A stretch of 64,000 bases of DNA, taken from NCBI RefSeq assembly GCF_003314975.1, contig NZ_QNRF01000006.1, positions 1 through 64,000 of the forward strand. The letters are read 5' to 3'. The position numbers were made by a program, and so were the translations under genes. The notes beneath the pieces were generated by a model. It saw nothing but the letters and a program-made list of their open reading frames with translations. It was not told the origin of the DNA and made no database searches. Numbering within the stretch: position 1 is the first letter of the stretch; each line of letters begins with the position of its first letter. The stretch is from Marinomonas aquiplantarum (lineage in GTDB: Bacteria > Pseudomonadota > Gammaproteobacteria > Pseudomonadales > Marinomonadaceae). Below are positions 1 to 63,888 of this stretch, in pieces.

Positions 1-174
1 TAGGTCATAACGATGTATCGACAACTCAAATTTATACTCATGTTATAGGCCAACATTTCGCGGGGACAGACAGCCCTTTGGATAAAATCTTATAATAATT
101 TGCTTTCACTGCCTGATGGCGTTGATCAGATCTACATATCGTTGTTAGCGATGAGTTCGTTTTAGGTTGCTGGG

Positions 175-230
175 CTAACCCCATCCTAGCCTTCCCCTTG
201 AAAAGGGGAAGGAACATGAGATTTGGTTTG
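175..230. repeat. Intergenic hairpin repeat, copy 1
   Basis: Starts CTAACCCCATCCTAGCCTTC and continues through CCCCTT, a short loop and AAGGGGAAGG, so the RNA or DNA can fold as CCTTCCCCTT/AAGGGGAAGG. It is followed by AACATGAGATTTGGTTT. This copy has the shortest loop of the five. It resembles a REP/MITE-like element. Confidence 0.75.
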
Positions 231-570: not shown

Positions 571-914
571 AGGTGTGAAATGCTTTAAAACGTAAAAAGA
601 GGTAATGAGCAACTCAACCCTTATCAATTCGACGCGATCCTGATTGCGCGACCTTATGGTCTTCCCAAGCCAGTAACCGAAGACCTTTCTCCAAGCATCA
701 AAACAGCTCAACACCTTACAATAGTGAACCCTATGCAAACATTGGCAACATCCGAAAGCAATGAGCCCTTATGATTCTGAAAAAGATTTTTTGGTTACTT
801 TTGCATCGTTTGGCAAAAGTTACCCGCTCAGCAGAGCGGAAAAAAGCTCCCCAATCAAAGCTAATAAGAGGAATCCAAAATAACCTAAGGAACAGTGAAT
901 TTGAGGTTGCTAGA

Positions 915-975
915 CTAACCCCATCCTAGCCTTCCCCTTGAAGACATAAGGGGAAGGAACATGAGAGTTCGTCAG
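915..975. repeat. Intergenic hairpin repeat, copy 5
   Basis: Nearly identical to copy 4 in head, loop and tail. It lies about 50 bases past the stop codon of the minus-strand D-lactate dehydrogenase gene, so in that transcript it could act as a 3' hairpin, although there is no clear U tract. Confidence 0.75.
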
Positions 976-53212: not shown

Positions 53213-53248
53213 AAAGCCCAATCACTCTACTAGAGTGATTGGGCTTCG
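53213..53248 (-). terminator. Intrinsic terminator in front of nasA
   Basis: On the minus strand, AAGCCCAATCACTC and GAGTGATTGGGCTT form a perfect 14-bp stem around a 5-base loop, followed by TTTTT. It ends 32 bp before the nasA start, inside what would otherwise be one nirBD-nasA transcript, so it probably attenuates nasA expression or marks the end of the upstream unit. Confidence 0.85.
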
Positions 53249-53267
53249 TTGCCTTTTGTAATATCTG

Positions 53268-53328
53268 ATTGCTTTGTTAGTAAACCAACTTTGGCTCAAG
53301 GTGCATCAGTTACTAATAACAAAGCAAT
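53268..53328. repeat. Inverted repeat in the nirD-nasA leader
   Basis: ATTGCTTTGTTA and TAACAAAGCAAT (12 bp, perfect) are separated by 37 bases, with an extra GTAA/TTAC pairing inside. It overlaps the 3' part of the small ORF and lies just upstream of the nasA terminator. Confidence 0.7.
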
Positions 53329-53370
53329 TAACAGGCCAAGTACAACAAACGCCAGCCAATCAGGATTCAT
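53296..53370 (-). CDS. Possible 24-residue hydrophobic leader peptide
   Basis: The 25-codon frame encodes MNPDWLAFVVLGLLIALLLV followed by TDAP: a charged start, one continuous membrane-like stretch and a polar end. It lies between nirD and nasA, upstream of a terminator, and ends inside an inverted repeat. There is no good Shine-Dalgarno sequence (AAGG is 17 bases upstream), so translation is uncertain. It could be a small membrane protein, a leader peptide or chance. Confidence 0.35.
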   Translation of the reverse strand: MNPDWLAFVVLGLLIALLLVTDAP

Positions 53371-53456
53371 GCGATTTGAGCTCGAACCTTAGATGACTCT
53401 CAATGGAAATATTGCGTTATTTTGGTGCAAATACCACGCTCAGGGTCAAAGAAGGA

Positions 53457-53792
53457 TCACTTACAAGCAACAAACACCTTGCCCGTCTCCAACTTCACAG
53501 GCCAAGTGGTTATCTTGACACCTTCTTCCTCAAGGCACTGTCCAGATTGCAATTCATAATGTTGCTTATACAGAGGACTCGCCACTGTCCACTGCTCTTT
53601 TAAATTCGCCAGCAAACCACGAGACAATACATTGGCTTTGCCAATTGGGTCCCAATTGCTGATGGCGAATACTTTTTGCTCTGCCTCTGGCACATAAAAC
53701 AAAGCAATTTGCTGTCCGTCCAACATGGCAGCAATGCCTGCGCCTTCGATCAAGTCCTGCTGTTCACACATCAATTTCCACTGCATTGTCAC
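53457..53792 (-). CDS. nirD: Nitrite reductase (NADH) small subunit
   Basis: The 111-residue Rieske-fold subunit lacks the cluster Cys/His ligands, as is usual for NirD. MQWKLMCEQQDLIEGAGIAAMLDGQQIALF and VLSRGLLANLKEQWTVASPLYKQHYELQSGQC match the family. The GTG start lies 3 bp after the nirB stop with AGG in front; ATG two codons later is an alternative. It partners NirB in reducing nitrite to ammonium. Confidence 0.92.
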   Translation of the reverse strand: MTMQWKLMCEQQDLIEGAGIAAMLDGQQIALFYVPEAEQKVFAISNWDPIGKANVLSRGLLANLKEQWTVASPLYKQHYELQSGQCLEEEGVKITTWPVKLETGKVFVACK

Positions 53793-53794
53793 GG

Positions 53795-56350
53795 TTAACC
53801 TGCCTTAGCAATCAGTTGCTGTTTTTCTGCTTCTGTCGCAGGGCGAATTTGATTTCGCTCTTCAACAAATACCACGTTGGCATCGCCACCTTCATAGTTG
53901 ACGAACTGACGGAAATTCTTCAACGCTTGCTCGTCTTCTAGTGTTGTTTTCCATTCACACTGGAAGGTATCCACCACATGTTGCATGCTTTGCTCTAACT
54001 CTTCACACAAGCCAAGCTTGTCTTCAATAACTACTTCTTTAAGATAGTCCAGACCACCTTCTAAGCCCTCCATCCACACGGACGTACGTTGTAAACGATC
54101 GGCTGTTTTGGTGTAAAACATCAAGACTCTGTCGATATACTTGACCAAGGTTTCATCGTCTAAGTCCGTAGCAAACAAGTCTGCATGACGAGGCTTCATA
54201 CCACCGTTACCACATACATATAAGTTCCAACCACCCTCTGTGGCAATCACACCTATGTCTTTACTTTGAGCCTCGGCACATTCGCGGGTACAACCGGACA
54301 CAGCGAACTTAATTTTATGCGGTGATCTCAAGCCTTTGTAGCGATTCTCCAGATGAATTGCCATGCCCATGCTGTCGTTGACACCGTAACGACACCAAGT
54401 GCTGCCCACACAGGATTTAACGGTTCGCAGTGACTTACCGTAGGCTTGGCCGGTTTCAAATCCAGCCGCCACCAGCTTCTCCCAAATTTCAGGTAATTGC
54501 GGTAAGGTCGCACCAAATAAATCAATACGCTGACCGCCGGTAATCTTGGTATACAAGCCATAATCTTTGGCCACCTGACCAAGTACAATCAGTTTATCTG
54601 GGGTAATTTCACCACCTGGAATACGCGGCACAATGGAATAAGTACCATCCTTTTGCATGTTGGCAAGGAATCTATCATTGGTATCTTGCAAACCAATATG
54701 CTCTTTTTTCAGTACGTAATCATTCCACACGCTAGCTAGAATAGAACCCACAGCAGGTTTGCAGATTTCACAACCATGACCTTTGCCGTGTTTTTGCAGT
54801 AGCTCAGCGAAGGTTTTAATGCCTTCGATTTTGATTAGGTTGTATAAATCCTGACGGGTATACGCAAAGTGCTCACAAATATCCGTACTAACTTCCACAC
54901 CCAGTGCCAATAATTCGTTATCGACCACCTTTTTCAGTAAAGCAGCACAACCACCACAGCCAGTAGCGGCTTTGGTGACCCCTTTGACATCGCCAACAGA
55001 CAAAGCGCCTGCGCAGACTGCATCACTGATGTCTTGCTTACTGACGTTATGACAACTACAAATAGACGCGGTAGCGGGTAAGGCATCGACACCCAAAGCG
55101 GCTGGCGCGCCATCCATGCTAGGTAAAATCAAAGACTGAGCATTGTCAGGCAGATCGATCGCGTTTAGGTAATATTGCAGCAAGGTATCGTAATAACTGT
55201 TGTCCCCCACCAAAACGGCACCCAATAGTTTCTTACCGTCTTCTGAGACCACCATTTTACGGTAGCTTTGAGTCAGCTCATCTTGATACACAAATACCTT
55301 ACAGCCTTGGGTTTGAGCGTGAGCATCACCGATCGAGCCGACATCACAGCCAAGCAACTTCAGCTTAGTGCTCATGTCAGCCCCCATAAAGCGTTTGTCC
55401 ACATCGCCCATAATATGTGCTGCCGCGGCTTTCGCCATGCTGTATCCTGGTGCCACTAGGCCAAAGATCCGACCATTCCACAAAGCACATTCACCAATGG
55501 CATAAATACTGTCATCACTGGTCAAACAATCGTTGTTAACACAAATACCGCCGCGCTCACCAATCTCCAAACCAGATTGTCTGGCTAAAGCATCCTGTGG
55601 GCGAATCCCAGCGGAAAACAAGATTAGGTCGGTTTCGAGATGACTACCATCGGCAAAATTCATACGGTGGAAGGCTTGCTCACCATCTATAATTTCTTGC
55701 GTGGCGGTAGCCGTGTTCACGCTTACATCCAAACCTTCAATCATTTCTTTTAACACTTGACCGCCGGTCTCATCTAATTGGACTGGCATTAAACGTGGTG
55801 CGAACTCAATCACACTGGTTTCCAAACCTAAGTTCTTAAGCGCATTGGCTGCCTCCAACCCAAGCAAGCCACCTCCGACGACCGTGCCACGCGTCACTTG
55901 TTTCGCACAATCTCGAATCGCATCCAAATCTTCAAGAGTACGATACACAAAAGTATTGTCCCTATCGTGACCAGGCATAGGCGGTACAAAAGGATAAGAA
56001 CCTGTCGCCAATACTAAAAGGTCATAAGGCAAGCTATCGCCCGACGCCAATTGCAATGACTTGGCAGCACGATCAATCCCTACGACTTGGCTATTAGTGA
56101 AATAGCGAACTCCATGTTCGTCGTATAGACGACCATCTGTCATGGCTAAGTCCGCGGCGGCTTTACCGGTAAAATATTCACTTAAATGCACACGGTCATA
56201 AGCCAAATGCGGCTCTTCGCCAAACACATCAATAGAAAATTGATGTTGCGCACCTTGCTCAATCAATTGTTCGATAAAGTGATGTCCCACCATACCGTTT
56301 CCCACGACGACTAAACGTGGTTTATCTGTTGTTGAAGTGTTTATAGTCAT
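53795..56350 (-). CDS. nirB: Nitrite reductase (NADH) large subunit
   Basis: The 851-residue enzyme reduces nitrite to ammonium with NADH. An N-terminal FAD/NADH reductase module comes first (VVVGNGMVGHHFIEQL, GGGLLGLEAANAL). Then comes a BFD-like [2Fe-2S] domain (CSCHNVSKQDI, TGCGGCAALLK). The siroheme/[4Fe-4S] domain has SCVGSTWCRYG and SGCTRECAEAQSKD supplying the four Cys. I start at MTINTS with GGGGAAA upstream; the longest TTG frame would overlap the previous gene by 35 bases and adds residues foreign to the family. Confidence 0.96.
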   Translation of the reverse strand: MTINTSTTDKPRLVVVGNGMVGHHFIEQLIEQGAQHQFSIDVFGEEPHLAYDRVHLSEYFTGKAAADLAMTDGRLYDEHGVRYFTNSQVVGIDRAAKSLQLASGDSLPYDLLVLATGSYPFVPPMPGHDRDNTFVYRTLEDLDAIRDCAKQVTRGTVVGGGLLGLEAANALKNLGLETSVIEFAPRLMPVQLDETGGQVLKEMIEGLDVSVNTATATQEIIDGEQAFHRMNFADGSHLETDLILFSAGIRPQDALARQSGLEIGERGGICVNNDCLTSDDSIYAIGECALWNGRIFGLVAPGYSMAKAAAAHIMGDVDKRFMGADMSTKLKLLGCDVGSIGDAHAQTQGCKVFVYQDELTQSYRKMVVSEDGKKLLGAVLVGDNSYYDTLLQYYLNAIDLPDNAQSLILPSMDGAPAALGVDALPATASICSCHNVSKQDISDAVCAGALSVGDVKGVTKAATGCGGCAALLKKVVDNELLALGVEVSTDICEHFAYTRQDLYNLIKIEGIKTFAELLQKHGKGHGCEICKPAVGSILASVWNDYVLKKEHIGLQDTNDRFLANMQKDGTYSIVPRIPGGEITPDKLIVLGQVAKDYGLYTKITGGQRIDLFGATLPQLPEIWEKLVAAGFETGQAYGKSLRTVKSCVGSTWCRYGVNDSMGMAIHLENRYKGLRSPHKIKFAVSGCTRECAEAQSKDIGVIATEGGWNLYVCGNGGMKPRHADLFATDLDDETLVKYIDRVLMFYTKTADRLQRTSVWMEGLEGGLDYLKEVVIEDKLGLCEELEQSMQHVVDTFQCEWKTTLEDEQALKNFRQFVNYEGGDANVVFVEERNQIRPATEAEKQQLIAKAG

Positions 56351-56390
56351 GTATTTCCCCTTGTCGGAGTTTCGCGCTACAAGCACTGAA

Positions 56391-57605
56391 TCAAGCGACT
56401 TGTGACTGGCAATAAGCCTCGCCAAATATCAGTCGATCCAGCATGGCTGTAACCTTCGTCTGGTTTTGAATCAGCTGGAAATACCAGCTACCATCGGCGA
56501 CGTTGCCGTATAGAATAGCGCCCACCAGTCGGCCGTCGTTGACCACCAGTTTGCGATAATGATTGGCGCTTACGTCTTCAAAAATAAGGCAAGCGTCATT
56601 TGCATCAGGCTGAATTTTTCCTACCGAAAATAGGTTTATGCCCGACACTTTCAATTTGGTTGGTGTTGGCATGATGGTAAAATTTGCGGCACTGCCTGCC
56701 AACACCTGAGTTAATACGCTAATTTGAGACCAAATCGGGGCCACCAAGCCAAAGGTTTGTTGCTCAAATTCACAACATTCGCCAAGGGCATAAATATCCG
56801 CATCCGACGTGGTCATTTGTGCATCAACCAAAATGGCTTTGTTTACCGCCAAGCCAGCCTGCTCGGCTAATTGCGTTTCAGGCACGATACCCGCCGCCAT
56901 GATCACCAGATCCACTGGTTTTTGCTGTCCATTACCGTGCAATAACCGACATACCGCCCCCGACGCATCATGAATAAATCGCGTAGGACTATCGGATAAA
57001 CAAAACTCAATCTCCATGGTTTCAAGACGACGTTGTAGCAAACTGGCTGCTGCAGCGTCTAACTGTCGATTTAACAAGTGACCACTGCGATGAAATACAG
57101 TGACCTGATGACCGCGTTTTACCAAACCAACAGCCGCCTCCAACCCAAGCAGACCACCGCCAACCACCACCACATTTTGTGCGGCTGGCAACGCTGACAT
57201 ACGGTCGACATCTTGCCAAGTACGAAAACCCATGACGTTATGCCCATTGGCGCCTTCTATGGGTAATATGTTGGCTTTGGAACCGGTCGCAAAGACCAGC
57301 TTGTCATAATCAATCACTCGACCAGATGATAAGATCACCTTTTTTTGTTTACTTGAAATAGTCACCACAGGGTCTTCGGCAATGATGTTCACGCCACTGT
57401 CGCGCATCTTAACCAGATCCACCAGCCGCATGTCTTCATCGCCAATTTCTTCCGCCAACAAAGACGACAACATAATGCGGTTGTAACCGACTTTCGGTTC
57501 TTCACCTATCAAGGTAATAGCAAGTTTAGCGGTTGAATTGTGTGCCAATTCCTCGGCTAATTTACTGCCCGCCATACCGGCACCGATTATGACTACTCGC
57601 ATCAT
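56391..57605 (-). CDS. FAD-dependent NAD(P)H oxidoreductase, nitrate reductase electron transfer component
   Basis: The 404-residue rubredoxin/nitrite reductase-type flavoprotein has FAD motif VVIIGAGMAGSKLAEEL (residues 3-19) and NAD motif VVVGGGLLGLEAAVGL. Its sequence parallels the N-terminal module of NirB (LGECCEFEQQTFGLVAPI). With nasA and nirB in the same run it most likely passes electrons from NADH to NasA, the role of NasB/NasC in other bacteria. It lies between the transporter ATPase gene and nirB, 14 bp after the former. Confidence 0.85.
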   Translation of the reverse strand: MMRVVIIGAGMAGSKLAEELAHNSTAKLAITLIGEEPKVGYNRIMLSSLLAEEIGDEDMRLVDLVKMRDSGVNIIAEDPVVTISSKQKKVILSSGRVIDYDKLVFATGSKANILPIEGANGHNVMGFRTWQDVDRMSALPAAQNVVVVGGGLLGLEAAVGLVKRGHQVTVFHRSGHLLNRQLDAAAASLLQRRLETMEIEFCLSDSPTRFIHDASGAVCRLLHGNGQQKPVDLVIMAAGIVPETQLAEQAGLAVNKAILVDAQMTTSDADIYALGECCEFEQQTFGLVAPIWSQISVLTQVLAGSAANFTIMPTPTKLKVSGINLFSVGKIQPDANDACLIFEDVSANHYRKLVVNDGRLVGAILYGNVADGSWYFQLIQNQTKVTAMLDRLIFGEAYCQSQVA

Positions 57606-57619
57606 GATGAAATACCCTG

Positions 57620-58465
57620 TTACGCGTTAGCCACTTTCGCGGCAGACGAACTGGTCGCTTTAGCATTTCCATTGATCGGCTCGACTTTACGTTGTTTTTC
57701 ATACAAGAATGTCAGTACCTGAGCGCGATAATCCACATACTTCGCATCATTTGCTAATGCCAAACGATCACGAGGTCGTGGCAAGTCCACGTCTAAAATC
57801 TCACCGATGGTCGCGGCTGGACCATTGGTCATCATAATAATGCGATCCGACAGCAACACCGCCTCATCCACATCGTGGGTAATCATGATGACGGTGTTGT
57901 TTAAGTCTTTTTGAATCTCCATAAGAGAGTCTTGCAGATGAGCTCGAGTCAAAGCATCCAAAGCACCAAAAGGCTCATCCATCAGCAACACACTTGGCTC
58001 CATTGCCAAGGCTCTTGCGATACCAACACGCTGTTTCATACCACCAGAAATTTCATCAGGACGCTTATCTGCCGCATGTGTCATGTGTACTAGATCTAAG
58101 TTATGCATGATCCAGTCATGCATTTCTTTTTTCGATTTGGTCTTTTTAAAGACTTGCTTCACCGCCAACTCAACATTCTGGTAAGAGGTTAACCAAGGCA
58201 ACAAGGAATGATTTTGAAACACCACCGCACGCTCTGGTCCAGGGCCTTTGACTTCTTTGCCATCAAGAAGCACACCACCTTCTGTCGCGTCATACAAACC
58301 CGCCACTATATTCAAGACAGTGGATTTACCACAGCCAGAATGGCCAATAAGAGACACAAATTCGCCTTTATTGATTTTTAAATTCACCCCATCTAAAGCT
58401 TTAAACGCCCCTTTTGGGGTTGGAAATTCGATGGATACTTGACTGATGTCTAGATGTGTCGCCAT
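57620..58465 (-). CDS. nrtD: Nitrate ABC transporter ATP-binding protein
   Basis: The 281-residue ATPase of the NrtD/SsuB-type subfamily has Walker A GHSGCGKST, signature SGGMKQRVGIARALAM, Walker B VLLMDEPFGALDALTR and switch His in ITHDVDEA. It powers nitrate uptake with NrtA and NrtB. I start at MATHLD because AGGAG lies at correct distance; two Met codons upstream are too close to it. It follows nrtB after 10 bp. It has only the ATPase, without the extra NrtA-like domain seen in cyanobacterial NrtC. Confidence 0.92.
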   Translation of the reverse strand: MATHLDISQVSIEFPTPKGAFKALDGVNLKINKGEFVSLIGHSGCGKSTVLNIVAGLYDATEGGVLLDGKEVKGPGPERAVVFQNHSLLPWLTSYQNVELAVKQVFKKTKSKKEMHDWIMHNLDLVHMTHAADKRPDEISGGMKQRVGIARALAMEPSVLLMDEPFGALDALTRAHLQDSLMEIQKDLNNTVIMITHDVDEAVLLSDRIIMMTNGPAATIGEILDVDLPRPRDRLALANDAKYVDYRAQVLTFLYEKQRKVEPINGNAKATSSSAAKVANA

Positions 58466-58475
58466 GTTCATTCTC

Positions 58476-59441
58476 CTATCGTAAAATTTGTGTCTTATCC
58501 CAAGACACAAAACGCTGAACCATCAACATGGCTCGATCCAATAAAAAGCCGATGAAACCTATCATCAACACCGCCACCATAATGCGACCAAGAGAGTTAG
58601 AGCTGCCATTTTGAAACTCGTCCCAGACGAACTTTCCTAACCCTGGGTTCTGTGCCAGCATTTCTGCAGCAATCAATACCATCCAGGCGATACCCAAAGA
58701 CAAGCGCAAACCAGTGAACATCAATGGAATGGCCGATGGGATGACGATTTTCATCACATGAGTAAACCAACCTAAACGCAGAACCTTAGAAACGTTCAGC
58801 AAGTCTTTTTCCACCGCGGCAACCCCAACCGCAGTATTAATCAAGGTTGGCCACATACAACATAGGGTGACAGTGAACATGGAGGTTAAAAAGGATTTAG
58901 AGAAGATCGGGTCATCAGATACGTAAGTCGCACTCACTACCATGGTGACAAGTGGCAACCAAGCAAGCGGTGACACTGGTTTAAAAACTTGAATAACGGG
59001 ATTTAGCGCACTGTACACCGCATTATTCAAACCAATCAAAATACCCAATGGAATGGCAATCAAACAAGCCAAGCCAAAACCAGCAAGTACGGTATACAAA
59101 CTGGTAAAAATTTGATCAAAAAAAGTCGGTTTGCCGGTATAGCTGCGAATTTTGCCCACATAATCAGGGTCTTTTGCCTGACGTTTGGCAATTCTGTCTT
59201 CCTGACGCTCATAAAAGCGCTGCTCTTTTACCCTTTCGCTCTGATGTTCACTAATCAGGTTACCCCATTGCTCATAGACTACGGCTGGCCCAGGAAATAC
59301 ACCCAATGATGTGTGTACTCGGCTGGCCCCAACCTGCCAGAGCATAATAAAAATAATGATTCCACACAGAGGCAAAAGAAGGCTTTTGATGGAGATTTGC
59401 TCAAGCTTTTCCTTTAAAGAGTGAATGGATAAATCTGACAT
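58476..59441 (-). CDS. nrtB: Nitrate ABC transporter permease
   Basis: A 321-residue membrane protein of the NrtB/SsuC type, with about six hydrophobic segments and the permease EAA-like loop around VLRLGWFTHVMKIVIPSAIP. A hydrophilic insert of about 50 residues follows the first membrane segment (SEHQSERVKEQRFYERQEDRIAKRQAKD), common in proteobacterial NrtB. It lies 10 bp from nrtD. A hairpin separates it from nrtA. Confidence 0.92.
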   Translation of the reverse strand: MSDLSIHSLKEKLEQISIKSLLLPLCGIIIFIMLWQVGASRVHTSLGVFPGPAVVYEQWGNLISEHQSERVKEQRFYERQEDRIAKRQAKDPDYVGKIRSYTGKPTFFDQIFTSLYTVLAGFGLACLIAIPLGILIGLNNAVYSALNPVIQVFKPVSPLAWLPLVTMVVSATYVSDDPIFSKSFLTSMFTVTLCCMWPTLINTAVGVAAVEKDLLNVSKVLRLGWFTHVMKIVIPSAIPLMFTGLRLSLGIAWMVLIAAEMLAQNPGLGKFVWDEFQNGSSNSLGRIMVAVLMIGFIGFLLDRAMLMVQRFVSWDKTQILR

Positions 59442-59522: not shown

Positions 59523-60932
59523 TTAAATCTGATCATCACCTTTCAGGCCGATCTGAAAGCTTTTCAAGTAATCATTTGGGCGCTTACCGTCATAAGTAAT
59601 GCCATCAATAAAATCACTTTGTGGCGACTTAAAGCCATCTTCGGTTGTAAAGTCTGGGAAATCAGAAGCCTGCATAAGGCCATCTTCAATCAAAGATTCA
59701 GCCGCTTGCGCGTAAATATCAGGGCGATACACGTCTTTCGCGGTTTTCATGAACCATTCGTCCGACTTAGGTTCTGCGATCTGTCCCCAGCGGCGCATTT
59801 GAGTCAGATACCAAATCGCGTCACTGTAGTAAGGATAAGTCGCGTTATGACGGAAGAACACGTTGAAATCTGGCACCTCACGTTTATCACCTTTTTCGTA
59901 TTCAAATGTTCCTGTCATACTGTTGGCGATAACATCATAGTCAGCCCCCACGTACTGACTTTGTGACAAAATTTCTACCGCTTCAGGACGGTTAGCATTG
60001 TTGTTTTCATCCAACCATTTCGCCGCTCGAATCATGGCTTTGACTACGCGAATATGAGTGATTGGGTACTCGTCAGCCCACTCTTTGCTCACACCAAATA
60101 CTTTTTCCGGGTTGTTTTTCCAGATCTCGTAGTCGGTGATTACAGGCACACCAATGCCTTTGAATACCGCTTGTTGGTTCCAAGGCTCACCAACACAGTA
60201 ACCATGTATGGTGCCAGCTTCCATTGTGGCGGGCATTTGTGGTGGTGGCGTTACTGACAACATGGCATCGGCATCGATTTGGCCACTGGTATCCCCTTTC
60301 GCAGGTGCGTAATAACCAGGGTGAATTCCGCCTGCCGCTAACCAATAGCGCAATTCATAATTGTGAGTTGAGACGGGGAAAACCATGCCCATGTTGAACG
60401 GCTTACCTTCTGATCGATAACGATCCACTACAGGTTTTAAAGCACTCGCACTAATAGGGTGAACTGGCTTACCGTCTGCTCCTTTGGCGATGTTGGGTTT
60501 CATCTCGTCCCAGACATCATTTGAAACGGTAATGCCGTTACCATTTAAGTCCATGCTAAACGCGGTAATAATGTGCGCTTTAGTACCATAACCAATCGTT
60601 GCGCCCAATGGCTGACCCGCCAGCATATGAGCACCATCTAATTGTCCATCAATCACGCGATCTAACAGTACTTTCCAATTGGCTTGCGCTTCCAAAGTAA
60701 CGTAAAGACCTTCATCTTCGAAATAGCCTTTCTCATAAGCAATGGCCAAAGGCGCCATATCCGTTAGCTTAATAAAGCCAAACTTCAATTCTTCTTTCTC
60801 AGGGTAATCCAACTCCGCATGAGCGGCGCCAGCCATTAAAAAGGAACCCAACAGCAAAGCCGCAGTGGACTTTTTCACTGATTCTGCCACTTTCGGCAAT
60901 TGCATAACCGTTTCCAAAGACCTCAAATTCAT
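59523..60932 (-). CDS. nrtA: Nitrate ABC transporter substrate-binding protein
   Basis: The 469-residue periplasmic nitrate-binding protein of the NrtA/CmpA family has a signal peptide of about 40 residues ([16 protein letters not shown]). Mature-protein hallmarks are [65 protein letters not shown] and [13 protein letters not shown] start at MNLRSL with GGAGAG well placed. The leader upstream carries two hexaloop hairpins and a terminator, so expression is expected to depend on the NasT antiterminator and nitrate. Confidence 0.95.
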
Positions 60933-60954
60933 CGTTACTCTCCGCTTCAAGACA

Positions 60955-61005
60955 CAAAAAAAGGTGCATGCAAATCACACTATTGTGTGTTTGCAGGCAC
61001 CTTTG
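60955..61005 (-). terminator. Leader terminator upstream of nrtA (ANTAR-controlled)
   Basis: On the minus strand, AAAGGTGCCTGCAAA and TTTGCATGCACCTTT pair (with one bulged C), topped by CACAC/GTGTG and an AATA loop, and are followed by a run of T. It ends about 23 bases before the nrtA start. Antitermination by NasT would be needed for read-through. Confidence 0.85.
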
Positions 61006-61025
61006 CCATTCATAAACGACTCTAC

Positions 61026-61070
61026 ATTGAGCCTTCAATCCTGTGGGTGACAATCAGCATCATTGCTCAT
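61026..61070 (-). promoter_or_regulatory. Two-hairpin ANTAR target motif
   Basis: On the minus strand the first hairpin is AGC-AATGAT-GCT (extended by AT/AT past one mismatch). The second is ATTG-AAGGCT-CAAT. Both loops are six bases long with A at position 1 and G at position 4, the rule for ANTAR-binding dual hexaloops. They precede a terminator, and an ANTAR protein (NasT) is encoded nearby. Confidence 0.72.
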
Positions 61071-61114
61071 TTCACCAAAATGTTTAGTTGATAATCTATC
61101 AATATATATGATTT

Positions 61115-61130
61115 AGCAGGATATATGCCA
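61115..61130 (-). promoter_or_regulatory. Candidate sigma-54 promoter of nrtA
   Basis: TGGCATATATCCTGCT keeps the essential GG-N10-GC of sigma-54 promoters. The transcription start would be near 61104, giving a leader of about 170 nt that includes both hexaloops and the terminator. Confidence 0.6.
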
Positions 61131-61243
61131 AAAAATCTAACCTGCTGATTTATATAAATTAAATAGTTATCAGTGCATTAATAGCTTCAAAAAAAGTTCT
61201 TTTTTGCTCTCAAATCAGGCACGACGCACCATAAAATGGCCTA

Positions 61244-62446
61244 CTAATCCTCTAATTTTATAAACCCTTTTAAGATACCTTTCGGATGCAGTCTCACCTT
61301 ACCGTTCGCAATATCTTCTAACCAAGTAGATTCTTGTGATGAGCTTAAATGCCACTGCCATTCTTGATCATGGTCTCCTGAGGCACGTTCATATATATCC
61401 TGACGATACACTTGCTTCGCCATCGAATTTAAATTCGTTGCTTCGGCTTTAGGCAGCTGATGCCAGCGATGCATTTGTCCCATAATCCATAGAGCGTAAC
61501 TGGGTAAGGGGCGATTAATCTCTTGGCCTGAAAAACGCTGATATGCTTCCATCGGCCAATCAAATTTGCCTTTCGGTTTAATCGCACTAAAACCGTATAC
61601 CAATTGTTCAACACTGCAATTTAGATAATCTGGATGACTTAAGATACTCAACAATTCCGTCTGGTTCGTTGGATTATCAACCCATTCACAAGCCTTTTCT
61701 AAAGCTCGTATCACCGCAAGATGCGTTAGTTCGTTTTGCTCAGCCCAAGAGGAATTCACACCAAACACTTTTTCCGGCGTACTCCCCCATATTTCATAAC
61801 CCGTTACCAGTAAATGACCAACCCCAGCTTCAACGGCCAAACTGTTCCAAGGTTCCCCAACACAATAACCATCTATGTCACCAGCCTTGAGACTATCAAT
61901 CATTTTCACTGGAGGAATGACGACAATTTGCACCTCTTCATCCGGATCAATATCAGCACGGGCCAACCAATCTCTAAGTTGATAATTATGAGATGAGTAT
62001 GGGTAAACCACAGCAAAGCGAAGCAAGGGTTGACCGTGTTTTGCACGTTCCTCAATATAACGCTTCAAGGCGGCACCATTTCGAATATCACTACTTTGCG
62101 TCACATACTGCGTCAGTTCTTCATACAAAGTATTGCCAACCGTAATGCCGTTACCATTGTGACTCACCGTAAAACTGGTTTGCATGGCGGTTTTTAATGT
62201 CCCAACGCCAAGGCTTGCCGCAATCGGCATGGATGCCAACATGTGTGCACCCTGCAAGATATTAAAGGTTACTTTATCGCGAATGCTGGCCCAAGACGCT
62301 TCTTTCGATAGGGTTACCGGAACCCCTTCTGCCGCAAAAAAACCTTTCTCTTTGGCAATAACAAAGGGCGCACAGTCAATTAATGGAATAAAACCGATTC
62401 GCACAGTCTGTTGAGATTCTAAAGAATTCTTTATCGCTAACGTCAT
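61244..62446 (-). CDS. nasS: NasS nitrate/nitrite-sensing protein
   Basis: The 400-residue protein belongs to the NrtA/CmpA fold ([65 protein letters not shown]). It lacks any signal peptide, which distinguishes the cytoplasmic sensor NasS from the periplasmic NrtA encoded next. In other bacteria NasS binds NasT and releases it when nitrate or nitrite binds, freeing it to antiterminate (family knowledge). The start overlaps the nasT stop by 4 nt, so the partners are made together. Confidence 0.9.
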   Translation of the reverse strand: MTLAIKNSLESQQTVRIGFIPLIDCAPFVIAKEKGFFAAEGVPVTLSKEASWASIRDKVTFNILQGAHMLASMPIAASLGVGTLKTAMQTSFTVSHNGNGITVGNTLYEELTQYVTQSSDIRNGAALKRYIEERAKHGQPLLRFAVVYPYSSHNYQLRDWLARADIDPDEEVQIVVIPPVKMIDSLKAGDIDGYCVGEPWNSLAVEAGVGHLLVTGYEIWGSTPEKVFGVNSSWAEQNELTHLAVIRALEKACEWVDNPTNQTELLSILSHPDYLNCSVEQLVYGFSAIKPKGKFDWPMEAYQRFSGQEINRPLPSYALWIMGQMHRWHQLPKAEATNLNSMAKQVYRQDIYERASGDHDQEWQWHLSSSQESTWLEDIANGKVRLHPKGILKGFIKLED

Positions 62447-63048
62447 TTAGAAGCTCCCATAATTTCCATCACTGAAATGATATTACGAGCCACTTCGGTC
62501 ATTCTTTGACTGCGATCCATCGCTAATTTTCTGAGGGCTTGATAAGCCGCAGGCTCATCACACTGTTGATGCTTCATAATCAACCCTTTTGCTTTATCAA
62601 TTAGCTTACGGTCTTCCAACTGAGTTTTTACCGTTTCAAGCTCAGAGCGTAATGCCTGAAACTCCCTAAAACGCGCGATAGCGACCTGTAAAATCGCCTT
62701 CACACTGCCACTGTTCACCCCATCGACAACATAAGCACTCACACCAGCACGAATAGCCGCTTCAACATGCCTAGAATCGTCTTCTTCGGCAAACATCACA
62801 ATTGGTCTTGGGTTATCTTGGGTAAGTCGAGACATATTTTCCAACATATCTCGGTCTGGGGATTCAATGTCAATGATCACCATATCTGGCTGACATTCCA
62901 TCACTGCCTGGCTTAAGTTCAGCGCATTTTCAAGGCGACGGATCACACGGTAGCCACTGTCTAACATAGCTTGCTCGACAATCGCCGCTCGGGCAGGTTC
63001 ATTATCAACCAACATAACGGTTAATTCATTCTTTGGGGGCGCAGACAT
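62443..63048 (-). CDS. nasT: NasT ANTAR-domain antiterminator
   Basis: The 201-residue protein has a receiver-like domain (1-120; VMLVDNEPARAAI, with Asp60 in VIIDIESPDRD). A coiled helix and the C-terminal ANTAR RNA-binding domain (about 135-195; DRKLIDKAKGLIMKHQQCDEPAAYQALRKLAMDRS) follow. It should bind the paired hexaloops in the nrtA leader and prevent termination once NasS lets it go. It is the first gene of the run, behind a sigma-54-like promoter with a possible NtrC site, which would link it to nitrogen limitation. Confidence 0.93.
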   Translation of the reverse strand: MSAPPKNELTVMLVDNEPARAAIVEQAMLDSGYRVIRRLENALNLSQAVMECQPDMVIIDIESPDRDMLENMSRLTQDNPRPIVMFAEEDDSRHVEAAIRAGVSAYVVDGVNSGSVKAILQVAIARFREFQALRSELETVKTQLEDRKLIDKAKGLIMKHQQCDEPAAYQALRKLAMDRSQRMTEVARNIISVMEIMGASK

Positions 63049-63089: not shown

Positions 63090-63105
63090 AGCAAGATATG
63101 CGCCA
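63090..63105 (-). promoter_or_regulatory. Candidate sigma-54 promoter of nasT
   Basis: TGGCGCATATCTTGCT matches the sigma-54 pattern (TGGCAC-N5-TTGCT) at nearly every conserved base with GG-N10-GC spacing. It predicts a start near 63079, about 30 nt before the nasT ATG. Confidence 0.7.
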
Positions 63106-63246: not shown

Positions 63247-63888
63247 TCAGCGCACTGAAAAGTGACGCTTTGCTTTCAAAGCCAAAGCAAGACGATCTCG
63301 AGTATCTGTTTTTTTGAAAACAGAGGTTAGGTGTGCTTTCACGGTTCTCTCAGTAATGGCCATCTCAGTGGCTACCTGCTTATTCGAAAGCCCTTCTGCC
63401 ACATAACGCACTACGTCCATTTCACGCTCAGACAAACCGTCCATTTCCAGAGAAGGTGAATCGACTTGTTCCGCTGATTGACTAATTAATTGCTGTATAA
63501 AGGCTTTACCGCCCCAAATTTCACCCGAATCAATGACTGACAGCACCAAAGATAACTGTTCTTCTCCTATATAAGGAGCACATTGACCATTCACACCAAT
63601 CGAAAATAAACGTAACGCAGCTTGCTGACTGGCTTGGTTTGGAAACACCAACATACTTTGAGCTGAAAACTCTGATTTTAATGTCACTAGCTCTTCGACT
63701 TGACTCGAGAACGTATCATCCGCTAGGTAGACAAAACAATATTGAAATGTTTGTTGAGACTCAATCAGCGCACGACGAGACGCCACTAAGCTGTCAACTC
63801 GAACAAGCTCTGCTCCCTGCGGGACAACTTTTAACCAATGCTCCCAAACAGCATCGTCTGTATTCCAACACAAAATTTTCAAAATCAA
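63247..63888 (-). CDS. LuxR-family response regulator
   Basis: A 213-residue regulator whose C-terminal helix-turn-helix (GLSEREMDVVRYVAEGLSNKQVATEMAITERTVKAHLTSVFKKTDTRDR) is a canonical LuxR/NarL type. The N-terminal 130 residues have the length of a receiver, but the acidic pocket and phosphoacceptor Asp are not recognisable (ILKILCWNTDDAVWE; FQYCFVYLADDT). It is therefore probably an atypical, non-phosphorylated receiver. The start is TTG with weak support and no ATG is available. It lies 198 bp upstream of nasT on the same strand; a role in nitrate control is possible but unproven. Confidence 0.75.
   Translation of the reverse strand: MILKILCWNTDDAVWEHWLKVVPQGAELVRVDSLVASRRALIESQQTFQYCFVYLADDTFSSQVEELVTLKSEFSAQSMLVFPNQASQQAALRLFSIGVNGQCAPYIGEEQLSLVLSVIDSGEIWGGKAFIQQLISQSAEQVDSPSLEMDGLSEREMDVVRYVAEGLSNKQVATEMAITERTVKAHLTSVFKKTDTRDRLALALKAKRHFSVR

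What the first reader, a model, noticed from the sequence alone, without database searches (positions are those of the whole stretch)
60933..61130. nrtA leader combines a sigma-54 promoter, dual A1/G4 hexaloops and a terminator
In about 200 bp I can read GG-N10-GC, two six-base loops with A1 and G4, and a strong terminator ending just before nrtA, while NasS and NasT are encoded immediately upstream. This predicts two-step control: nitrogen limitation starts transcription and nitrate permits read-through. NasST-type antitermination is known, but the exact leader here seems worth testing.
Basis: partly seen in the sequence, partly recalled or inferred. Interest (0 to 1): 0.65.

Follow-up and report, generated by a model that had tools for sequence, protein, structure and literature searches.

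The report
Nitrate-controlled RNA switch before nrtA
Just before a marine bacterium's nitrate-uptake genes lies a short RNA control region that probably stops transcription unless nitrate frees a partner protein to grip small RNA loops; the basic switch is known, but here it carries a third loop, and close relatives seem to have swapped the controlling protein.

Summary
On the minus strand of a Marinomonas genome the order is nasT, nasS, a sigma-54-type promoter, three hairpins whose six-base loops carry A1 and G4 (H1, H2, H3), an intrinsic terminator, then nrtABC. H3 overlaps the terminator's 5' arm. H2 plus H3, 10 nt apart, fit the published ANTAR antiterminator; the H1 loop starts 36 nt further upstream. 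Among 33 leaders of the genus the promoter core and H3 stem are invariant, and H2 covaries (4 of 5 pairs change on both sides). H1 is kept in 22 of 33 by a rule that allows 6- or 7-base loops. A dyad sits upstream in 27 of 33, mostly in helical register, and nasT has its own sigma-54-type site. Outside the genus, an A1/G4 hexaloop at the H1 position occurs in 11 of 41 sigma-54-bearing leaders (0.23 expected). Seven genus genomes carry a one-protein NIT-ANTAR regulator (NasR type) instead of NasST, yet keep an nrtA leader. Best explanation: two-step control, nitrogen limitation to start and nitrate-released NasT to read through. This is a known kind of switch with a variant third hexaloop. Function is inferred, not shown.

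The parts
63090..63105 (-). sigma-54-type site TGGCGCATATCTTGCT in front of nasT
   Evidence: a TGGC-N8/9-TGC site within 220 bp upstream of nasT in 28 of 34 genus loci; coordinates
62443..63048 (-). nasT, receiver + ANTAR antiterminator protein
   Evidence: Pfam ANTAR 7e-20 and Response_reg 8e-12; the only ANTAR match in the genome
61244..62446 (-). nasS, NrtA-like nitrate-sensor protein
   Evidence: Pfam NMT1_2 3e-75; matches nitrate/bicarbonate transporter proteins in the PDB; overlaps nasT by 4 bases
61205..61221 (-). dyad TGC-N11-GCA, possible enhancer-protein (NtrC) site
   Evidence: YGC-N11-GCR in 27 of 33 leaders, 2.35 expected (strict TGC-N11-GCA 14 of 33, 1.16 expected); 25 of the 27 begin 90-93 or 101-104 bp upstream of the -24 element, one at 113 and one at 133
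61115..61130 (-). sigma-54-type promoter of nrtA (-24/-12), TGGCATATATCCTGCT; start expected at 61104
   Evidence: TGGC and TGC invariant in 33 of 33 leaders
61046..61076 (-). H1 hairpin with hexaloop AATGAT (61059-61064)
   Evidence: A1/G4 loop of 6-7 nt with >=4 contiguous bp in 22 of 33 leaders, 5.1 expected; the window itself is not among the 22 because its top stem is 3 bp and then a 1x1 mismatch; loop column 1 is A in 25 of 30 and column 4 is G in 28 of 29 rows with letters
61018..61033 (-). H2 hairpin (ANTAR P1), hexaloop AATGTA (61023-61028)
   Evidence: stem 93.5% paired, 4 of 5 pairs with changes on both sides; A1/G4 hexaloop with >=4 bp in 26 of 33, 1.5 expected
60996..61007 (-). 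H3 hairpin (ANTAR P2), hexaloop AAAGGT (60999-61004), overlaps the terminator's 5' arm
   Evidence: GGC AAAGG Y GCC in 33 of 33; its 5' GGC lies outside the terminator stem yet is invariant
60956..61004 (-). intrinsic terminator and U run
   Evidence: -25.6 kcal/mol; 94.2% of cells paired, 8 of 19 pairs with changes on both sides
60938..60945 (-). probable ribosome-binding site GCGGAGAG
   Evidence: sequence, 5 nt before the ATG at 60932
59523..60932 (-). nrtA, nitrate-binding protein, first gene of nrtABC
   Evidence: Pfam NMT1_2 2e-98; nrtB 58476-59441 (TIGR01183, below its cut-off) and nrtC 57620-58465 (TIGR01184, above its cut-off)

Best explanation
This is the leader of the nrtABC-nirB operon, controlled in two steps. 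Step 1 (inferred): under nitrogen limitation an enhancer-binding protein, most likely NtrC, acts from upstream, possibly from the dyad at 61205-61221, and makes sigma-54 polymerase start near 61104; nasTS is started in parallel from its own sigma-54-type site. Step 2 (inferred from NasST of other bacteria): without nitrate NasS holds NasT, the terminator folds and transcription ends near 60956; with nitrate NasT is freed. It grips the upstream hexaloops (H2, perhaps also H1), then H3 as it emerges. H3 contains the 5' arm of the terminator, so the terminator cannot form and transcription reaches nrtA. Shown by sequence and comparison: the parts, their conservation, H2 and terminator covariation, mutual exclusion of H3 and terminator. 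Not shown: start site, protein binding, nitrate response, a role for H1.
For: Gene identities. NtrC and RpoN in the genome. nasT-nasS-leader-nrtABC order in 33 loci. Invariant promoter core. H2 covariation: with H3 included 96.0% of cells paired and 37 double-change cells against 12.5 in shuffles (H3 itself never varies). Terminator covariation. H3 invariant although its 5' GGC is outside the terminator. Model R1: one strong leader in 33 of 34 NasT genomes and a weak one in the 34th; the only other strong match is the nrtA leader of a NasR genome, G023. nrtA (E <= 1e-20) found in 0 of 7 ANTAR-less genomes and 7 of 7 NasR genomes. The combination in 24 of 40 NasT-like loci of the class, 0 of 40 on the reverse strand. 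NasR SELEX preference for a C:G closing pair with A1 and G4 (PMC7496416, passages), met by H1, H2 and H3. Lower nas transcription in a P. stutzeri ntrC mutant (PMC8443478, passages).
Against: No expression or binding data. 3 of 32 genus leaders have G, not A, at H2 loop position 1, and one has A instead of G at position 4. The dyad plus sigma-54 combination was not seen upstream of four ammonium-transporter genes of the same genome, so its assignment to NtrC is unproven. 16 of 40 class loci did not give the full combination, and eight loci of Billgrantia, Halomonas, Aidingimonas and two MAGs gave nothing (L143-L147, L149-L151). Genus leaders are related, so counts in them are not independent.
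Confidence: 0.88

Rival explanations
1. The working pair is H1+H2 (or H1+H3); H3 is conserved only because it is part of the terminator.
For: H1 recurs in other genera, some of which lack an A1/G4 loop at the H2 place; H1 loop columns are well kept in the genus.
Against: The 5' GGC of H3 is outside the terminator and invariant in 33 of 33; H1 is absent from the three shortest leaders, which keep H2 and H3; H2-H3 has a 10-nt linker, within the 5-12 nt of the E. faecalis eut leaders (PMC3369931 section 7).
Confidence: 0.07
2. The hairpin is an ordinary terminator of nasTS and is not regulated.
For: It lies between nasS and nrtA and folds strongly.
Against: It lies downstream of the conserved sigma-54-type promoter and 24 nt before nrtA; its 5' arm is tied to an invariant A1/G4 hairpin; ANTAR proteins and nrtA co-occur in the genus.
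Confidence: 0.03
3. A leader peptide controls the terminator: the ORF ATGAGC...TGA (61035-61070) is translated and its translation sets the fold.
For: An 11-codon ORF exists in the window leader; 24 of 33 leaders have some ATG ORF of at least 5 codons before H3.
Against: The start ATGAGCAA occurs in only 4 of 33 leaders; the other ORFs were not compared with each other.
Confidence: 0.02
4. H1 is not a NasT site but only a 5' hairpin that protects or folds the RNA; its A1/G4 loop is coincidental.
For: Many genus H1 loops are 7 nt, not 6 (10 of 33 leaders with exactly 6 and >=4 bp, 2.7 expected); H1 is absent in some leaders.
Against: At the H1 place in 41 sigma-54-bearing leaders outside the genus, 11 have a C:G-closed A1/G4 hexaloop, 0.23 expected. 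Counted by hand on the sigma-54-bearing rows, none has a C:G-closed hexaloop of another kind there.
Confidence: 0.35

Closest known systems
NasS-NasT control of nasA, Paracoccus denitrificans (PMC3795266, PMC5424462, passages read)
   Same: NasS/NasT pair; hairpin leader between nasS and the structural operon; NasT binds the leader RNA; NtrBC involved in nitrogen control
   Different: There nasABGHC, here nrtABC-nirB; the passages describe hairpins HI and HII and an NtrC site at nasT, with none yet identified at nasA; here a sigma-54-type site, three A1/G4 hexaloops and a dyad lie directly before nrtA
Two-hairpin ANTAR antiterminator (EutV/eut, NasR/nasF; PMC3369931 section 7 and part 1 of section 10; PMC7496416 and PMC8934654, passages)
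   Same: Hexaloops with A1 and G4, C:G closing pair, second hairpin inside the terminator's 5' arm, linker 10 nt (H2-H3)
   Different: A third A1/G4 hexaloop (H1), its loop starting 36 nt upstream of that of H2; in several other genera the upstream loop is about 32-59 nt from P2, beyond the 5-12 nt of the eut leaders and the 2-25 nt used for actinobacteria (PMC8164766, passage)
NasR-nasF of Klebsiella oxytoca (passages of PMC7496416 and PMC5424462)
   Same: Nitrate-dependent antitermination; seven Marinomonas genomes have a long ANTAR protein (NIT-ANTAR in the four tested) and keep an nrtA leader
   Different: Here the regulator is the two-protein NasST; the Marinomonas NasR-type genes are not next to nrtA (about 6 kb away in G015, farther or on another contig in the rest)

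Membership tests
ANTAR target RNA (two-hairpin antiterminator) | two stem-loops of at least 3 bp with hexanucleotide loops, A at 1 and G at 4 | tested here: met
   H2 and H3 in the window; across the genus A1 29/32 and G4 31/32 for H2, both 33/33 for H3
ANTAR target RNA (two-hairpin antiterminator) | second hairpin overlaps an intrinsic terminator | tested here: met
   H3 60996-61007 against terminator 60960-61004
ANTAR target RNA (two-hairpin antiterminator) | linker of 5-12 nt between the hairpins (eut leaders) | tested here: met
   10 nt between H2 and H3 from the window coordinates and in L116
ANTAR target RNA (two-hairpin antiterminator) | C:G pair closing the loops (NasR SELEX) | tested here: met
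   C:G at H1, H2 and H3 of the window; across the genus H2 has C 31/32 and G 32/32
ANTAR target RNA (two-hairpin antiterminator) | bound by an ANTAR protein | not testable with these tools
   needs a gel shift
NasS-NasT regulatory pair | NasT = receiver + ANTAR; NasS = NrtA-like; adjacent genes | tested here: met
NasS-NasT regulatory pair | nitrate-sensitive NasS-NasT complex | not testable with these tools
   known for Paracoccus (PMC3795266, passages)
sigma-54 promoter with enhancer protein | -24 GG / -12 GC with consensus flanks; RpoN and NtrC in the genome | tested here: met
   (the consensus itself is recalled)
sigma-54 promoter with enhancer protein | NtrC-binding site upstream | tested here: inconclusive
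   conserved YGC-N11-GCR dyad, one mismatch by eye to the Paracoccus motif quoted in PMC5424462; not found at four amt genes
Rfam families | match over a gathering score | tested here: not met
   no match in the window

The most novel reading that the evidence does not exclude
Many proteobacterial NasT antiterminators are built on three hairpin places, not two: one A1/G4 loop about 45-66 nt and one about 18-34 nt upstream of the loop that blocks the terminator, either of which can serve as the landing site and some leaders using both, so that NasT is handed from loop to loop as the RNA emerges. The same leader can be read by NasT or by a NasR-type protein, and lineages of Marinomonas have exchanged the two regulators at least twice while keeping it.
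Probability: 0.4. Interest if true: 0.6.

Novelty: new variant of a known kind. Interest (0 to 1): 0.45.

Why it matters
If right, the two-hairpin rule with a short linker does not describe a good share of NasT leaders, and ANTAR searches built on it will misplace or miss elements. The Marinomonas set also gives a natural experiment: the sister pair G007 (NasST) and G023 (its only ANTAR protein is NIT-ANTAR) has nrtA leaders 80% identical overall (128 of 160 aligned columns) and 77 of 88 columns from H2 to the terminator, so recognition of one leader by two kinds of nitrate-sensing regulator can be tested directly.

Tried and rejected
Model R1 (H2-H3-terminator) found only this genus among 293 genomes of the order (15 candidates per genome scored there), so it does not reach other genera; I used gene neighbourhood plus a motif scan instead.

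Weak R1 matches (about 20-28 bits) were not treated as further targets: such scores also occur in genomes without any ANTAR protein (G020 at 27.8 bits, G043, G044). The nrtA leaders of the NasR genomes G008, G010, G013 and G021 score no higher than 31 bits, and those of G015 and G019 were not listed, so for these the evidence is their place before nrtA, not the score.

A middle hairpin bridging H1 and P2 in leaders without an A1/G4 loop at the H2 place was considered. Linker folding z averaged -1.2 over 22 leaders, five of them with a true H2: not convincing, so I do not claim it.

NtrC identity of the dyad: checked upstream of four of the five ammonium-transporter matches, not found.

L058 (G035) was left out of alignment A1 because its P1 and linker differ, and L057 from the leader counts because its contig ends before nrtA (its leader is on another contig). 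For one search I took the 40 best-scoring of the 59 other genomes with a NasT-like match. For some searches I gave 58 loci: those 40 and 18 of the 56 loci L136 and L140-L195 without L159; the eight loci without a detectable leader (L143-L147, L149-L151) and most Mesorhizobium loci were not given. One search kept 48 by a rule that lets an upstream A1/G4 loop stand in for sigma-54 and so favours the result; one search repeats the count with sigma-54 alone (41 loci). Some loci are from one genus (L222/L223, L224/L225, L140-L142), so the counts are not fully independent. The 'far' zone (7 A1/G4, 7 other) is not a clean background: some of its loops lie in the promoter and three are the Marinobacterium upstream loops.

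A leader peptide was rejected (4 of 33).

Full report
WHAT IS THERE. The window comes from a Marinomonas genome (named relatives; the nearest record there, by NasT, is Marinomonas sp. TW1). All features are on the minus strand. nasT (receiver + ANTAR) and nasS (NrtA-like) overlap by four bases. Then come a dyad, a sigma-54-type promoter, a leader of about 170 nt and nrtABC, followed by a FAD oxidoreductase and nirB. nasT is the only ANTAR match of the genome. NtrC (764 bits, over its cut-off) and a single sigma-54 are present.

THREE LOOPS, NOT TWO. The leader holds three hairpins whose six-base loops begin with A, have G at position 4 and are closed by C:G: H1 [AATGAT], H2 [AATGTA], H3 [AAAGGT]. 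H3 shares the letters AAAGGTGCC with the 5' arm of the terminator, so the two cannot coexist. Alone, the terminator is far more stable (-25.6 kcal/mol) than H3 (-2.8 with its six-base loop, -4.7 when A1 pairs with U6), so H3 would need a protein to hold it. In the window, loop starts lie 60 (H1) and 24 (H2) nt upstream of the H3 loop start. In 22 of 33 genus leaders the first CA[AT][CT]G in the spacer, the start of the H1 loop, lies at -60 or -61; eight had no match and three lay elsewhere.

CONSERVATION. 41 of 48 genomes searched in the genus have an ANTAR protein. 34 have NasT; 33 leaders could be compared. TGGC and TGC of the promoter are invariant in 33 of 33. GGCAAAGG(C/T)GCC is present in 33 of 33, and its first GGC lies outside the terminator, which argues for the H3 hairpin itself. 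H2 covaries: 93.5% of cells paired, 4 of 5 pairs changed on both sides, 37 double-change cells against 12.5 in shuffles (31 distinct rows of 32, L058 left out). The terminator covaries too. H1 is less strict: 22 of 33 leaders have an A1/G4 loop of 6 or 7 nt on at least 4 contiguous pairs against 5.1 expected, but only 10 of 33 when the loop must be exactly 6 (2.7 expected), and the window's own H1 fails that rule because its top stem is 3 bp followed by a mismatch. The three shortest leaders (L056, L060, L064) lack H1. Model R1 finds one strong leader in 33 of 34 NasT genomes, with G035 weak at 32 bits; the only other strong match is in the NasR genome G023. As far as this model sees, NasT has a single target per genome here. 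Genus rows are related and not independent.

PROMOTER SIDE. A dyad YGC-N11-GCR lies upstream of the promoter in 27 of 33 leaders, 2.35 expected; the strict TGC-N11-GCA in 14 of 33, 1.16 expected. 25 of the 27 begin 90-93 or 101-104 bp upstream of the -24 element, about one helical turn apart, as one would expect of a protein that must face the polymerase (inference). The window copy differs at one place, by eye, from the NtrC motif quoted for Paracoccus in PMC5424462 (passage). I did not find the pattern at four ammonium-transporter genes, so NtrC remains an inference. nasT has its own sigma-54-type site in 28 of 34 genus loci; sigma-54 promoters of nasT-type genes have been predicted before in beta- and gammaproteobacteria (PMC12316311, passages).

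BEYOND THE GENUS. Of the 40 best-scoring NasT-like loci of the class, 24 have P1 + P2/terminator + sigma-54 on the coding strand and 0 on the reverse strand. Among L161-L195, mostly Mesorhizobium, 32 of 35 show P1 and a P2 over a terminator, mostly ggc[AAAGCT]gcc (two of the three misses are short stretches). Eight loci (L143-L147, L149-L151) gave nothing. With sigma-54 and P2/terminator as the only conditions, 41 of 58 loci qualify: 15 have a C:G-closed A1/G4 hexaloop 18-34 nt upstream of P2 (0.19 expected), 11 have one 44-66 nt upstream (0.23 expected) and 2 have both. By hand count on the sigma-54-bearing rows, no C:G-closed hexaloop of another kind stands in the 44-66 zone, while further upstream the two kinds are 7 and 7 (Fisher 0.008; that background is not clean, see Tried and rejected). 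Without the sigma-54 condition four more loci have both loops (L224, L225, L237, L239; L224 and L225 are of one genus). Marinobacterium has its upstream loop at -71 to -73, outside the zone. In some Neptuniibacter leaders the upstream hexaloop has a mismatched stem and was seen by eye only.

REGULATOR EXCHANGE. Seven genus genomes have no NasT but a 423-432 aa ANTAR protein; Pfam, run on four of the seven, shows NIT + ANTAR, the NasR architecture. Its gene is not next to nrtA: about 6 kb away in G015, farther or on another contig in the rest. All seven have nrtA; in the seven genomes without an ANTAR protein none was found at E <= 1e-20. Their nrtA leaders have a GG-N10-GC site in seven of seven (that of G015 read by eye), and six of seven keep P2 GGC[AAAGGY]GCC; G015 has another P2. 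P1 loops are A1/G4 in G010, G013, G021 and G023, G1/G4 in G008 and, by eye, G015, and neither in G019 by eye. On an nrtA tree of 49 rows the NasR label needs four changes, at least two forced by well-supported branches, and G023 (NasR) is sister to G007 (NasT) at 100/99. The direction of change is not settled because the root is not. In three NasR loci (L063, L068, L070) the NasR gene is itself followed by a GG-N10-GC site (by eye) and a P2 tggac[AATGGC]gtcca over a terminator; the next gene is a formate/nitrite transporter in L063 (Pfam) and, by its N-terminus, in L068.

MECHANISM. Known from others: NasS-NasT splits on nitrate and NasT binds the nasA leader (PMC3795266, passages); NasR and EutV recognise two A1/G4 hexaloops, the second inside the terminator (PMC3369931 section 7 and part 1 of section 10; PMC7496416 passages; PMC8934654 passages); nas genes are down in an ntrC mutant of P. 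stutzeri (PMC8443478, passages). Placed on this anatomy they give two-step control: nitrogen starvation to start, nitrate to read through. The role of H1 is open: a second landing site, or only a 5' hairpin.

NOVELTY. The switch is of a known kind. I saw no description of a third A1/G4 hexaloop in a NasT leader, or of regulator exchange at one leader, in the listings of six paper searches or the passages read; PMC8934654 mentions an extra single hexaloop in EutX (passage), and PMC5424462 notes that NasR functionally replaces NasTS in Klebsiella (passage). The Azotobacter nasAB leader paper (Wang 2012) is not held and may show more.

Noticed in passing
window 63247-63888 (-): A 213-aa LuxR-type protein (GerE domain, no receiver recognised) has a homologue upstream of nasT in 33 of 34 genus loci (L061 lacks it). 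In three NasR-type genomes (L104-L106) a protein that looks related by eye stands directly before the nrtA leader. Its role is unknown.
   Followed up: partly
L063, L068, L070 (G013, G023, G021): NasR-type gene followed by a GG-N10-GC site and a P2 hexaloop over a terminator, then in L063 a formate/nitrite transporter and a PP2C-kinase fusion gene: a second ANTAR-type leader in these genomes.
   Followed up: partly
G045:C12:323400-323558 (L072): A second, weaker ANTAR protein (41.7 bits, 238-aa frame) in one NasT genome.
   Followed up: no
L136 (Reinekea forsetii): NasT is 80% identical to the query Marinomonas proteins though the genus belongs to another family; its leader has P1 loop GACGCA (G1/G4). 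Possible horizontal transfer.
   Followed up: no
window 169-182, 378-391, 909-922 (-): Three near-identical 14-mers GGGGTTAGYCYAGC, possibly a repeated element.
   Followed up: no
window 53242-58007 (-): Four further GGCANNGNNGCC strings in and near the nir/nrt genes; 7 in the window against 1.64 expected.
   Followed up: no
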